From positions 434,001-498,000 of the forward strand of contig QQUE01000012.1 of NCBI GenBank assembly GCA_008501765.1: 64,000 nt of DNA, in the 5' to 3' direction. How positions within the stretch are numbered: position 1 is the first letter of the stretch; each line of letters opens with the position of its first letter. Below are positions 2,994 to 8,056 of this stretch, piece after piece. The position numbers were made by a program, and so were the translations under genes. The DNA comes from Calditrichota bacterium (GTDB lineage Bacteria; Zhuqueibacterota; Zhuqueibacteria; Zhuqueibacterales; Geothermadaptataceae). The notes under the pieces were generated by a model that had not been told where the DNA came from, searched no databases, and was given only the letters and a program-made list of their open reading frames with translations.

Positions 2994-3761
2994 TTATTTA
3001 CTTGTCTTATCATTATGATATATCTGCCTTGCCACCACACACGCCGCACCAAAACCGTTGTCAATATTGACGACAGAAATTCCAGCAGCACAACTGTTGA
3101 GCATCGCCAGCAAAGCAGCGATGCCGTTAAAACTCGTGCCGTATCCGATAGATGTGGGCACTGCAACAATTGGTACGCCGATGAGTCCGCCAATCACACT
3201 GGCTAAAGCGCCTTCCATTCCCGCCACAACTATCACAAAATCAACCTCCTGCAGTTGCTCCAGCTTATCGAACAACCGGTGAATTCCAGCAACGCCGACA
3301 TCATAAATTCTGATGCACGGAATCGACAAAACGGCCAAAGTTTCTGCCGCTTCTTCTGCAACAGGTATATCACTGGTGCCGGCAGACAACAACGCCACTC
3401 TGGATTTTTTTTCAGGAGTTTTGTCGGGAATTTTTGAAGCGACTGTTCGCGCTGTTCTATTATAAATCAGATCGGGGAATTGACGGATGACTTCTTCTGC
3501 GGATTCAGGCGCAATTCTGGTGGCAAGCAAATAGCTGTTATTTTTAAGAATATGTTCTGCGATGCCAACAATTTGGTCCGTTGATTTACCTTCACAAAAG
3601 ATAGTTTCCGGCCACCCCTGGCGCAATGTTCGATGGTGATCAATATTGGCAAAGGACAAATTTTCAAATGGCAATTTTTTAAAACTTTCAATCACTGATT
3701 TTTCATCGATTTCACCATTCCGAAACCGTTGCAGCAATTGTTTTATTTGTCCTTCATCCAT
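2994..3761 (-). CDS. larB: LarB-like nickel-pincer cofactor biosynthesis protein (PurE-related carboxylase)
   Basis: LarB carboxylates and hydrolyses nicotinic acid adenine dinucleotide, the first step towards the nickel-pincer nucleotide cofactor of lactate racemase and related enzymes. The 255-residue protein has the LarB N-terminal segment (IKQLLQRFRNGEIDEKSV, near residues 5-22) with a conserved tract around IDHHRTLRQGWPETIFCEGK. A C-terminal PurE-like domain (about 125-250) carries ALLSAGTSDIPVAEEA, IRIYDVGVAGIHRL and VVAGMEGALASVIGGL. LarC and LarE are not in the window, so the pathway cannot be shown to be complete. The ATG has no strong ribosome site visible. Confidence 0.9.
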   Translation of the reverse strand: MDEGQIKQLLQRFRNGEIDEKSVIESFKKLPFENLSFANIDHHRTLRQGWPETIFCEGKSTDQIVGIAEHILKNNSYLLATRIAPESAEEVIRQFPDLIYNRTARTVASKIPDKTPEKKSRVALLSAGTSDIPVAEEAAETLAVLSIPCIRIYDVGVAGIHRLFDKLEQLQEVDFVIVVAGMEGALASVIGGLIGVPIVAVPTSIGYGTSFNGIAALLAMLNSCAAGISVVNIDNGFGAACVVARQIYHNDKTSK

Positions 3762-4073: not shown

Positions 4074-5192
4074 ATGAAAGACCCGCGCCATCACCAATTA
4101 GCCGAAGTTCTCATCAATCATTCCACCCGCTTGCAAAAGGGTGAGCGAATTCTTATCGAAGCTATCGACACACCACACCAGCTTGTCGTCGAACTCATTA
4201 ACCTGGTCCAGGAAAAAGGCGGTATCCCGTTTGTGACTATTAAAAACAATGAGATAACCCGCGCTCTGATAAAAAATTTGCCGGAAACTGGCTTTGAAAA
4301 ATGGGGTGAAATGGATACCGCGCGCATGGAAGAAATGCAGGCCTACATCGGCATCCGCGGCGGCCAAAATGTGATGGAAATGTCGGATGTATCCACCGGA
4401 CAGATGGGGCTCTACAAAACCCACTACGTCAAACCGGTGCATTTTGATACCCGGGTGAAAAAAACCAAGTGGGTTGTTCTGCGCTACCCATCGCAGTCAT
4501 TTGCCCAGCAAGCCGGGATGAGCACAGAAGCATTTGAAGAATTTTATTTCAAAGTCTGCACCCTGGACTATGGAAAAATGTTCGAGCGGAGCCAGGCATT
4601 AAAAGCCTGGATGGATCGTACCGATAAAGTTCGCCTCACAGGAAAAGGAACTGAACTCGTTTTCAGCATTAAAGATATTCCGGCAATTCCATGCGGCGGC
4701 GAGTACAACATCCCCGATGGCGAATGTTTCACCGCCCCCGTCCGCAACAGTGTCAACGGTGTAATCCACTACAACACGCCAACTATTTACGAAGGCACGG
4801 CTTTTAACGACATTCGTCTCGAGTTCAAAGACGGAAAAATAATCGACGCTGTGGCTGATAAAACCGAGAAACTCAACGAGATTCTTGATACAGACGATGG
4901 GGCACGATTTGTGGGTGAATTTGCCATCGGTTTTAATCCCCATGTCACCCGGCCGATGCTCGATATTCTATTCGATGAAAAGATCGCCGGCTCGTTCCAT
5001 TTTACACCGGGACAAGCCTATGAGGACGCAGACAACGGCAACCGCTCCAAAGTGCATTGGGACATGGTTATGCGGCAAACGGAAGATTGCGGTGGTGGCG
5101 AAATCTATTTTGACGATGTTCTCATCCGTAAAAATGGTTTGTTCGTGCCCGAAGATTTGCAGCCGTTGAATCCGGAAAACCTGATTGGTTAG
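4074..5192 (+). CDS. M29-family metallo-aminopeptidase
   Basis: Cytoplasmic dinuclear-metal aminopeptidase of the thermophilic/AmpS (M29) family, 372 residues. The N-terminal domain (MKDPRHHQLAEVLINHSTRL, KGERILIEA) matches the family. The C-terminal catalytic domain supplies metal ligands in the expected order: Glu in TIYEGTAFND, Glu in VGEFAIGFNP, His and Tyr in FHFTPGQAYED, and His and Asp in VHWDMVM. The ATG follows GAGGGGCC, a reasonable ribosome site. It removes N-terminal residues from peptides; substrate preference is not readable. The next genes run on the same strand. Confidence 0.93.
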   Translation: MKDPRHHQLAEVLINHSTRLQKGERILIEAIDTPHQLVVELINLVQEKGGIPFVTIKNNEITRALIKNLPETGFEKWGEMDTARMEEMQAYIGIRGGQNVMEMSDVSTGQMGLYKTHYVKPVHFDTRVKKTKWVVLRYPSQSFAQQAGMSTEAFEEFYFKVCTLDYGKMFERSQALKAWMDRTDKVRLTGKGTELVFSIKDIPAIPCGGEYNIPDGECFTAPVRNSVNGVIHYNTPTIYEGTAFNDIRLEFKDGKIIDAVADKTEKLNEILDTDDGARFVGEFAIGFNPHVTRPMLDILFDEKIAGSFHFTPGQAYEDADNGNRSKVHWDMVMRQTEDCGGGEIYFDDVLIRKNGLFVPEDLQPLNPENLIG

Positions 5193-5250
5193 ATAAACCA
5201 AAAAATTAATTCACAGCACTATTGAACATGGAACACAATTTTGGAATCCT

Positions 5251-5589
5251 TTGTTTATGTTTATTAACTCACCAAAGCCACCATATTACGCAGCTATTTT
5301 TACGTCAGAGCTAAAAACAGGCGTTAATGATGATTATTCAGAGATGGCTGAAGAAATGGCGGCGCTGGCAGAAAAACAGCCGGGTTATCTCGGTATCGAT
5401 TCTGTTCGCGATGCCGATGGTTTGGGAATAACCATTTCTTACTGGCAGAGTGAGGAAGATATCCTGCAATGGAAACAGAATGCACGCCATAAAGTTGCCC
5501 AGAAGCTCGGGTTGACGCAGTGGTATAAAACTTTTTCATTGCGTATTTGCAAAGTGGAACGTGATCGTTTTTTCCCCAACGCAAAGTAA
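5251..5589 (+). CDS. Antibiotic biosynthesis monooxygenase-like (ABM) domain protein
   Basis: Small single-domain protein of the dimeric alpha/beta-barrel ABM superfamily. Typical features are the N-terminal strand YYAAIFTSELK, a helix rich in EMAEEMAALAEKQPGYLG, the strand GITISYWQSEEDILQWK, and NARHKVAQKLGLTQWY. Proteins of this kind are often small oxygenases or stress proteins, but no catalytic role can be read. The frame opens with a TTG at 5251 and an ATG two codons later at 5257; either may be used. It ends 15 bases before the Rdx/SelW-type gene and is probably co-transcribed with it. Confidence 0.85.
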   Translation: MFMFINSPKPPYYAAIFTSELKTGVNDDYSEMAEEMAALAEKQPGYLGIDSVRDADGLGITISYWQSEEDILQWKQNARHKVAQKLGLTQWYKTFSLRICKVERDRFFPNAK

Positions 5590-5604
5590 TTTAAGGAGTC
5601 CAGA

Positions 5605-5826
5605 ATGAATGTTTCTATAGAATATTGTGTGATGTGAAATTATGAGCCCAGAGCTCTCAGTTTGAAAGCTGCTATTGAAAATAAAATAACAAATATCTCA
5701 ATTGAACTGATCAAATCCAGCGGCGGTGTCTTTGAAATCGTTTTCAACGACCGGTTGATTTATTCTAAAAAGCAAACCGGCCGGTTTCCCGAAGAGAGTC
5801 AAATTATTGGATTGCTGGAATCGTAA
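5605..5826 (+). CDS. SelW/Rdx-type thioredoxin-fold selenoprotein with in-frame UGA (Sec) at codon 11
   Basis: Read through the UGA at 5635-5637, this is a 73-residue Rdx protein: MNVSIEYCVM, then U, then NYEPRALSLKAAIE, ending with SSGGVFEIVFNDRLIYSK and TGRFPEE. The final block is the Rdx hallmark (GxFEV..NG.LIFSK...GRFP). The UGA sits exactly where the family has the second Cys or Sec of its CxxC/CxxU redox motif (C8-V-M-U11). The ATG has a good AAGGAG site eight bases upstream. A candidate bacterial SECIS hairpin lies 3' of the UGA. Conventional gene calling would miss the gene because no frame spans the UGA. The alternative is a nonsense mutation, but the exact position and the intact remainder favour selenocysteine. 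Sec machinery is not in this window. Confidence 0.85.
5652..5670 (+). promoter_or_regulatory. Candidate bacterial SECIS element
   Basis: Directly 3' of the UGA, AGCU (5652-5655) pairs with AGCU (5667-5670). A C-A mismatch and UC/GA pairs follow, leaving the loop AGUUU (5659-5663). The loop has a G in its first two positions and begins 21 bases after the UGA, within the 16-37 base spacing I recall for bacterial SECIS elements. The stem is short, and a competing 4-bp hairpin (GAGC/GCUC at 5644-5656) is possible, so the fold needs calculation. Confidence 0.5.
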
Positions 5827-5864
5827 TTATAAACGCAAAATTATCAAATTATTACGCAGGATGT

Positions 5865-6794
5865 GTGTTGAAAGCCAAACTATGTGCCCCAATAATCCCG
5901 CTACTGCTCATTTTGACCTTTGGATGTGAAAAGCCTCAAATGAACAAACTTCAGACCGCCAAATTAACCCAACAAATATCCGACCTGTCTGATGATTTAA
6001 ATGCACAAATCGGCGTTTATTTTTATGACCTTGGCACCGCGCAGGAATTTCAATTTAATGCCAAAACCATGATGCATGCGGCAAGCACGATGAAAGTTCC
6101 GGTGATGATCGAACTTTTTCGACAGGCGGAAGACAACAAGCTGAATTTGACCGACAAACTCCTTGTTGAAAATAAATTTTACAGTATCGTCGACAGCAGC
6201 GTTTTCACTCTCGAACTCAATCGCGACAGCGGCGAAGCGCTCTACGATTCGCTGGGCAAAGAAGTAACGATTCGCCGATTGATCACCGACATGATCACCC
6301 ACAGCAGCAATTTGGCGACAAATCTGCTCATCCAGTTGGTGGATGCAAAAAACGTCACCACCACGATGCGCAGCCTGGGTGCGGATACAATTCAGGTTTT
6401 GCGTGGCGTTGAGGATATAAAAGCATTCCGGAAAGGCTGGAGCAATTACACCAATGCCTACGATTTAGGCATGATTATGAAAGCCATTGCCACATCCACC
6501 GCTGCATCCGATACCAGTTGTATCGAAATGATTGACATATTATCGCAGCAGGCATTCCGGAAAAAAATACCGGCAGGCATTCCCGACAGTGTGAGAGTAG
6601 CCAATAAAACCGGCTCAATTACAGCGATAAATCATGATTGTGCCATCGTCTTTCCACCGGAGCGTAAACCGTATATCCTTGTTGTACTTACAAAAGGCAT
6701 TGCCGAACCCGAAAAAGCAGAGTCGGCGATTGCTGCAATTTCAAAATCCATCTTCGACGACTTGCACCGGCGCCCATCAGCGGGGAAATATTGA
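5865..6794 (+). CDS. Class A beta-lactamase-like serine hydrolase, probable lipoprotein
   Basis: Exported serine hydrolase of the beta-lactamase/PBP-like fold, 309 residues from a GTG at 5865 (TTG at 5868 is also possible) after an AGGA site. The hydrophobic leader IIPLLLILTFGC suggests a lipoprotein, although the lipobox is not canonical. Catalytic motifs are visible: STMK (SxxK, near residue 75), HSSN where class A enzymes have SDN, GVED in the omega-loop region, and NKTGSI (KTG). The Asp of SDN is replaced by Ser. It could be a true beta-lactamase or a peptidoglycan-related hydrolase; motif spacing fits class A. It is followed by another exported-protein gene on the same strand. Confidence 0.88.
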   Translation: MLKAKLCAPIIPLLLILTFGCEKPQMNKLQTAKLTQQISDLSDDLNAQIGVYFYDLGTAQEFQFNAKTMMHAASTMKVPVMIELFRQAEDNKLNLTDKLLVENKFYSIVDSSVFTLELNRDSGEALYDSLGKEVTIRRLITDMITHSSNLATNLLIQLVDAKNVTTTMRSLGADTIQVLRGVEDIKAFRKGWSNYTNAYDLGMIMKAIATSTAASDTSCIEMIDILSQQAFRKKIPAGIPDSVRVANKTGSITAINHDCAIVFPPERKPYILVVLTKGIAEPEKAESAIAAISKSIFDDLHRRPSAGKY

Positions 6795-6856: not shown

Positions 6857-8056
6857 ATGAACCGACAAAACTTTCAGCCCACACTTTTGATTATCCTGCT
6901 TTCCATTACTTTGTGGAATTGTGAACGCGACAAATTCGATGTCGACTTGCTGTACCAGTTTGGGAATAACGAAAAATCACTCCCGTACGTCATCCCCAAA
7001 TCGGTCGACCTCGATCTCGTCGATTCCATTGGCGTACCGCTGATTTTACCAGAAAAACACACATCGCAGGCTCTGGCAAGTTTTTTTATGCTGGGAAATA
7101 CCAACAAAAAACTCTTTTTCCTTTTGGATAAAGAATCCGAAAATGCGAAGAATTACAGCCGGCTCTATCTCGATAGTGATTTAGACCGCGACTTTTCAAA
7201 TAATGCCGCAGTCCCGCTCACAAAAGCCAGTTTCATTGCTGCTCGCAACCAGCACTATATTGAATTTGATTCCGTTACCCTTCCCTATTATTTTCAATCG
7301 CCAAAGCGGAAAAGCAGGCAGGAACAATTTGGCAAACTTTACTTTTGGCAACCTGTGCGCGGCATCCCGACAACAGCCCACTTTTTACGAAATAGCTGGC
7401 GTCAGGGTAATTTTGAATTTAACGATAAAGATTTGACCGTCATATTAATCGATGACGATTGCAACGGACTCTTTGATACGCAGGACAATTGGGCAATTTT
7501 TGAATCTACGACTCTCAATTTTAGTGATACCCACTTTAACCAATTTCATGAAACCACCCGCCTTGCCTGGTATGAAAACACGGCATTTGAGGTAATAAAA
7601 ATTGACGGCAGCGGTCACGCCATCACCCTGAAACGCAAGGAAACCGATTACACGCGAGAAGAGGATCTCAATCGAAACAACCCCTATCTCGATGAACCGC
7701 AAAGACCCCGGGCTGCCCGGGAAATTCAATGGATGACCAGTCTCAAATCAGCGCTTCGCAAAGCACGCCGGACGCGGAAACCGATATTAATTGAATTCAG
7801 TACAAAATGGAGCGGGCCCTGCATCACCATGAATGAGCGCACCTATCGCGATGCAGAAATCGTGAGTCTCTCCGACAGTTTCGTCTGCCTGCGGCTGGAT
7901 GGCGATACAGAAAAAGAGCTGGTGAAATCCTATAATATCACCCGTTTCCCGACAACGGTAATTCTTGATCGCAGAGGCAAAGAACTCTCGCGCGCCATTG
8001 GCTATCAGCCTGCCACAGAATTTTCATCTTACATTGCGCAATTCGCAAAAAAATAG
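6857..8056 (+). CDS. Exported protein with C-terminal thioredoxin-like domain, single-Cys active site
   Basis: 399 residues. A hydrophobic N-terminus (LLIILLSITLWNC) suggests export and possibly lipid anchoring. The middle part (about 30-280) is unrecognised and contains the calcium-loop-like DLDRDFSNNA and DDDCNGLFD. The last 110 residues are a thioredoxin-fold domain of the DUF255/thioredoxin_7 kind: RKPILIEFSTKWSGPC, then SDSFVCLRLDGDTEKELVKSY and cis-Pro segment TRFPTTVILDRRGKEL. The usual CxxC is WSGPC, so the first, nucleophilic Cys is Ser. The domain may therefore not be a standard disulfide reductase. No homologous full-length family was recognised. Confidence 0.75.
   Translation: MNRQNFQPTLLIILLSITLWNCERDKFDVDLLYQFGNNEKSLPYVIPKSVDLDLVDSIGVPLILPEKHTSQALASFFMLGNTNKKLFFLLDKESENAKNYSRLYLDSDLDRDFSNNAAVPLTKASFIAARNQHYIEFDSVTLPYYFQSPKRKSRQEQFGKLYFWQPVRGIPTTAHFLRNSWRQGNFEFNDKDLTVILIDDDCNGLFDTQDNWAIFESTTLNFSDTHFNQFHETTRLAWYENTAFEVIKIDGSGHAITLKRKETDYTREEDLNRNNPYLDEPQRPRAAREIQWMTSLKSALRKARRTRKPILIEFSTKWSGPCITMNERTYRDAEIVSLSDSFVCLRLDGDTEKELVKSYNITRFPTTVILDRRGKELSRAIGYQPATEFSSYIAQFAKK

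What the first reader, a model, noticed from the sequence alone, without database searches (positions are those of the whole stretch)
5605..5826. Unannotated SelW/Rdx selenoprotein read through an in-frame UGA, with a candidate SECIS
The 73-codon frame is intact on both sides of one UGA, and the UGA sits precisely at the Sec/second-Cys site of the CxxU motif (C8, U11). The C-terminal Rdx block is perfectly recognisable. The SECIS-like hairpin begins at a spacing compatible with bacterial Sec insertion. Standard gene finders stop at the UGA, so this gene would be missing from ordinary annotation. It also implies that this organism has selA/B/C/D.
Basis: partly seen in the sequence, partly recalled or inferred. 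Interest (0 to 1): 0.88.

Follow-up and report, generated by a model that had tools for sequence, protein, structure and literature searches.

The report
A bacterial SelW-type selenoprotein gene
A small redox-protein gene in an uncultured KSB1-type bacterium reads one internal stop codon as selenocysteine; this is real and well supported, but it belongs to a widespread, already known family of bacterial selenoproteins.

Summary
Window 5605-5826 encodes a 73-residue Rdx/SelW-like protein whose codon 11 is an in-frame UGA in a CxxU motif (Pfam Rdx 8e-22; NCBIfam SelTWH_Campy above its cut-off). The genome has the complete bacterial selenocysteine trait: tRNA-Sec (UCA anticodon), selA, selB, and a selD that itself carries an in-frame UGA. 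In the own genome and relatives, 38 of 39 Rdx matches contain a UGA (the other begins after the site). All 79 named homologues checked, from many phyla, have UGA at the same site. The SECIS is an 8-pair stem (5652-5659 with 5663-5670, one C-A mismatch here) and a GUU loop whose G lies 22 nt after the UGA. Single-sequence folding does not support it, but covariation does: 5 of 8 pairs show compensatory changes in the KSB1 class and again in 70 outgroup sequences. The loop serine is AGU in 70 of 70 cases. SelW-like proteins are among the commonest known bacterial selenoproteins, so this is a new member of a known kind. Two side results are of more interest: a conserved order M29 peptidase - SelW - beta-lactamase-like protein in the class, and selC in at least 41 of 60 of these genomes, although a published KSB1 survey reports it absent.

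The parts
5605..5826 (+). SelW-like / Rdx selenoprotein gene, 73 residues including Sec11, stop TAA
   Evidence: translation; PF10262 8e-22; NF041051 97.7 bits, cut-off 88; dN well below dS after the UGA
5635..5637 (+). UGA selenocysteine codon, second position of CxxU (C8 = 5626-5628)
   Evidence: TGA inside 38 of 39 class Rdx matches; UGA at this site in 79/79 named homologues
5652..5670 (+). SECIS hairpin: 5652-5659 pairs with 5663-5670 (C5656-A5666 mismatched here), loop GUU 5660-5662 with the invariant G at 5660
   Evidence: covariation in 31 class sequences, RNAalifold recovers the inner 6 pairs, 70 outgroup sequences, AGU codon constraint
5592..5598 (+). AAGGAG ribosome-binding site
   Evidence: sequence
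4074..5192 (+). M29 family metallopeptidase, upstream on the same strand
   Evidence: PF02073 2.4e-52; upstream of Rdx in 22 of 37 testable class genomes
5251..5589 (+). ABM-domain (antibiotic biosynthesis monooxygenase) small protein, 15 nt before Rdx
   Evidence: PF03992 1.1e-9; found only in the two same-genus genomes
5865..6794 (+). Beta-lactamase2 (class A-like serine hydrolase) with a lipoprotein-like N-terminus, downstream
   Evidence: PF13354 1.4e-56; downstream of Rdx in 18 of 38 class genomes; lipoprotein reading inferred from the N-terminal LTFGC

Best explanation
This is a functional bacterial selenoprotein gene of the SelW-like/Rdx family. While the mRNA is translated, SelB carrying Sec-tRNA-Sec binds the hairpin at 5652-5670 and delivers selenocysteine at the UGA of 5635-5637. 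This gives a 73-residue protein with a C8-x-x-U11 redox pair at the start of a thioredoxin-like fold. The selenol of U11 and the thiol of C8 probably form a selenenylsulfide that is reduced by thioredoxin, glutathione or another thiol, so the protein acts as a small thiol oxidoreductase. The gene order suggests, but does not show, that its partner or substrate lies in the M29 peptidase / beta-lactamase-like operon. Shown by computation: the frame, the family, the UGA site, the conserved SECIS, and the full selA/B/C/D set. Inferred: actual Sec insertion, redox activity, and the operon partnership.
For: Family matches above curated cut-offs. tRNA-Sec 66.4 bits, gathering score 47, anticodon UCA. 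selB 342 bits, cut-off 242. selD 353 bits, with U17 at SCGU. selA 544 bits. TGA inside 38 of 39 class matches and at the same site in 79/79 named loci. SECIS: 82% of cells paired, 47 cells with compensatory changes against 3-14 when slid, covariation score 0.393 against 0.142 shuffled. Outgroups: 77 such cells against 10-39 when slid. Loop codon AGU in 70 of 70 serines against 12% of serines downstream. Purifying selection after the UGA, e.g. dN 0.016 / dS 0.97. Relatives with solved structures include SelW and SelW-related proteins.
Against: The hairpin of the window is no more stable than shuffles, and the outermost pair and the mismatch are weak. Rfam has no match. Coding constraint and RNA constraint overlap in the same bases, so part of the conservation is protein-level. 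No expression, proteomic or enzymatic data exist. The redox partner is unknown.
Confidence: 0.96

Rival explanations
1. Pseudogene: an Rdx gene inactivated by a nonsense mutation, with a remnant of the frame.
For: An in-frame stop codon exists.
Against: The same UGA is kept across a whole class and many phyla, dN is well below dS downstream, there is no other lesion, and the full Sec machinery is present.
Confidence: 0.01
2. UGA read through without selenocysteine, as Trp or by near-cognate suppression.
For: Frame continuity alone does not name the inserted residue.
Against: Ordinary genes in the window read cleanly under code 11. tRNA-Sec with a UCA anticodon and selA/B/D are present. A covarying SECIS follows the UGA. 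The site is the Cys/Sec site of CxxC/U in the family.
Confidence: 0.02
3. The conserved bases after the UGA reflect protein constraint only, and Sec insertion uses another or no specific hairpin.
For: Single-sequence folding is not significant; the region encodes a conserved helix.
Against: Compensatory changes at five pairs in two sets, with slid controls far lower. Serine is always AGU and never AGC or UCN. The invariant G lies in the loop, as in known bacterial SECIS elements (PMC4607533).
Confidence: 0.02

Closest known systems
Bacterial SelW-like selenoprotein (Rdx, PF10262; NF041051; TIGR02174)
   Same: CxxU at the N-terminus, C-terminal GGVFE...SKK..GRFP block, about 70-75 residues, SECIS just after the UGA; matches the curated models
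   Different: Nothing at the family level. The linkage to M29 peptidase and Beta-lactamase2 genes is limited to the KSB1 class here
SelW-like family of marine metagenomes (PMC1088965, PMC2398784)
   Same: CxxU motif, bacterial SECIS with a small G-containing loop; reported there as the most abundant selenoprotein family, with 427 members in GOS
   Different: Here from KSB1-type genomes, with the genome context known
SelW of Epsilonproteobacteria (PMC4607533)
   Same: SelW genes missed by annotation, with a short covarying apical hairpin and an invariant loop G
   Different: Different phylum, and its own stem sequence
Mammalian SELENOW (PDB 2npb) and bacterial Rdx proteins of solved structure (PDB 2fa8, 2p0g)
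   Same: Same family by sequence
   Different: The eukaryotic SECIS lies in the 3' UTR; the bacterial solved structures are taken to be Cys forms (own knowledge)

Membership tests
Rdx / SelW-like selenoprotein family | Match to the family profile above its curated cut-off | tested here: met
   PF10262 77.7 bits (cut-off 22.6); NF041051 97.7 (88) and TIGR02174 71.9 (34.2)
Rdx / SelW-like selenoprotein family | CxxC/CxxU redox motif near the N-terminus, with Sec at the second position | tested here: met
   C8-V-M-U11; C8 and U11 (shown as C) invariant in the 25-row alignment
Rdx / SelW-like selenoprotein family | Thioredoxin-like fold | tested here: inconclusive
   Sequence matches to solved family members down to 1.4e-9; no model of this protein was computed
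Bacterial selenoprotein (Sec insertion) | selA, selB, selC and selD in the same genome | tested here: met
Bacterial selenoprotein (Sec insertion) | SECIS hairpin just 3' of the UGA, small apical loop with a conserved G | tested here: met
   G5660 comes 22 nt after the UGA
Bacterial selenoprotein (Sec insertion) | UGA conserved, or exchanged with Cys, in homologues | tested here: met
Bacterial selenoprotein (Sec insertion) | Selenium present in the protein | not testable with these tools
   needs 75Se labelling or mass spectrometry

The most novel reading that the evidence does not exclude
In this class the SelW-like selenoprotein is part of a conserved redox-proteolysis unit: M29 metallopeptidase, SelW, and a beta-lactamase-like lipoprotein. 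It would act on or with the peptidase, for example by reducing a regulatory thiol, which would give a genomic lead to the unknown role of bacterial SelW.
Probability: 0.15. Interest if true: 0.5.

Novelty: new member of a known kind. Interest (0 to 1): 0.25.

Why it matters
It shows that KSB1-type bacteria use a standard, complete selenocysteine system with SelW and SelD as selenoproteins. It corrects the published impression that selC is missing from KSB1. It also gives a conserved gene neighbourhood for a protein family whose bacterial role is unknown. Otherwise it is one more case of a gene that is easily truncated or missed by annotation.

Tried and rejected
Rfam scan of 5500-5900: only chance-level matches, no SECIS family hit. 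Single-sequence folding of several stretches: no significance for the window's own sequence. Scan for other TGA-interrupted genes in the window: the eight further frames sent to Pfam gave no credible family match. Literature search for SelW linked to an aminopeptidase operon: no paper. No structure prediction was run, because family membership was already clear.

Full report
Observation. The frame 5605-5826 is ATG to TAA with one internal TGA at codon 11, giving MNVSIEYCVMUNYEPRALSLKAAIENKITNISIELIKSSGGVFEIVFNDRLIYSKKQTGRFPEESQIIGLLES. An AAGGAG sits 6-7 nt upstream of the start. The product matches Pfam Rdx at 8e-22 over nearly the whole model, and NCBIfam NF041051 and TIGR02174 above their cut-offs. 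A six-frame search of the whole 5.9 Mb genome finds this as its only Rdx match, with one TGA inside. Whether the gene is missing from annotation could not be checked.

Selenocysteine machinery. The genome has tRNA-Sec at C11:11248-11341, 66.4 bits against a gathering score of 47, with anticodon UCA by ARAGORN. selB lies about 2 kb away on the same contig, 342 bits against 242. selA is at C18, 544 bits against 268. selD is at C3:229267-230187, 353 bits against 125, and is itself interrupted by one TGA at the SCGU active site. The trait is complete.

Conservation of the UGA. Of 60 class-level genomes including the own, 38 have an Rdx match (39 matches in all). Thirty-eight matches contain a TGA: 36 have exactly one TGA and no other stop, one has two TGAs, and one short fragment has a TGA and a TAA. 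The remaining match begins after the site (model position 12) and has no stop. The TGA lies at the CxxU site in each of the 31 sequences that were extracted. A search of named genomes, with a query that begins after the UGA so that it is not biased towards it, returned 80 loci. They come from KSB1, Gemmatimonadota, Desulfobacterota, Marinimicrobia, Zixibacteria, Acidobacteria, Planctomycetota and others. All 79 that could be parsed have TGA at this site. These are the nearest 80 of at least 502, so Cys forms further away are not excluded. After the UGA, synonymous change far exceeds non-synonymous change in close pairs, e.g. 0.97 against 0.016.

SECIS. Folding the window's sequence alone gives nothing beyond shuffled sequence, and Rfam has no match. 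The evidence is comparative. On 31 class sequences aligned without gaps from the UGA, the stem 5652-5659 / 5663-5670 with loop GUU (5660-5662) is paired in 82% of cells. Five of eight pairs show changes on both sides, with 47 such cells against 3-14 in slid controls and a covariation score of 0.393 against 0.142 shuffled. RNAalifold finds the inner six pairs by itself. The same structure, counted on 70 sequences from outside KSB1, gives 85% paired and 77 compensatory cells against 10-39 in slid controls. The loop G is invariant. The serine codon that forms the loop is AGU in 70 of 70 sequences with serine there, whereas AGU is 12% of serine codons downstream. The loop G comes after 22 nt from the UGA. 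A small apical hairpin with an invariant guanosine is what is reported for bacterial SECIS elements (PMC4607533, PMC1088965).

Organism. The window is therefore from a KSB1-type bacterium; this is inference.

Neighbourhood. In the window the gene lies between an M29 metallopeptidase plus a small ABM-domain protein upstream and a Beta-lactamase2 protein downstream, all on the same strand. M29 is upstream on the same strand in 22 of 37 class genomes where enough DNA was held. Beta-lactamase2 is downstream in 18 of 38. Both are present in 16. The closest spacings are about 15-20 nt (tally by hand from those tables). No M29 match was seen beside the 70 outgroup loci. The ABM gene is found only in the two same-genus relatives. 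This is a functional lead only. No paper in the library links SelW with an aminopeptidase operon.

Comparison with what is known. SelW-like was the most abundant family in the Sargasso Sea selenoproteome (PMC1088965) and in the GOS set, with 427 sequences with CxxU (PMC2398784). SelW genes missed by annotation are reported in Epsilonproteobacteria (PMC4607533). SelW-like was noted to have few or no Cys homologues in Sec-using bacteria (PMC1794560), as seen here. KSB1 genomes were reported to have selA, selB and selD but to lack selC (PMC9012183). Here selC is clear in this genome and in at least 41 of 60 class genomes, so the reported absence is most likely a gene-finding artefact. selA is over cut-off in 53 of 60.

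Verdict. The gene is a new member of a well-known kind, with modest interest from the operon lead and the selC correction.

Noticed in passing
L001 (G000 C11:11248-11341) and 40 other class genomes: tRNA-Sec (selC) is present, contrary to the KSB1 survey PMC9012183, which reports selABD but no selC.
   Followed up: yes
L019:1399-2442 minus strand (G000 C3:229267-230187): selD carries an in-frame TGA at codon 17 (SCGU), so SelD is itself probably a selenoprotein.
   Followed up: partly
window 4074-6794: Conserved order M29 metallopeptidase - SelW-like - Beta-lactamase2 across much of the KSB1 class; function unknown.
   Followed up: partly
window 6857-8056: Protein with a C-terminal thioredoxin-like domain that matches the C-terminal part of the selenoprotein TsoB model far below its cut-off; also near Rdx in some relatives.
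   Followed up: no
window 2994-3761 minus strand: LarB, nickel pincer cofactor biosynthesis protein (283 bits, cut-off 175), next to sucCD-like genes.
   Followed up: no
G014:C719:18996-19208 (within L058): One relative's Rdx frame has two in-frame TGA codons; not examined whether the second is a second Sec or an assembly error.
   Followed up: no
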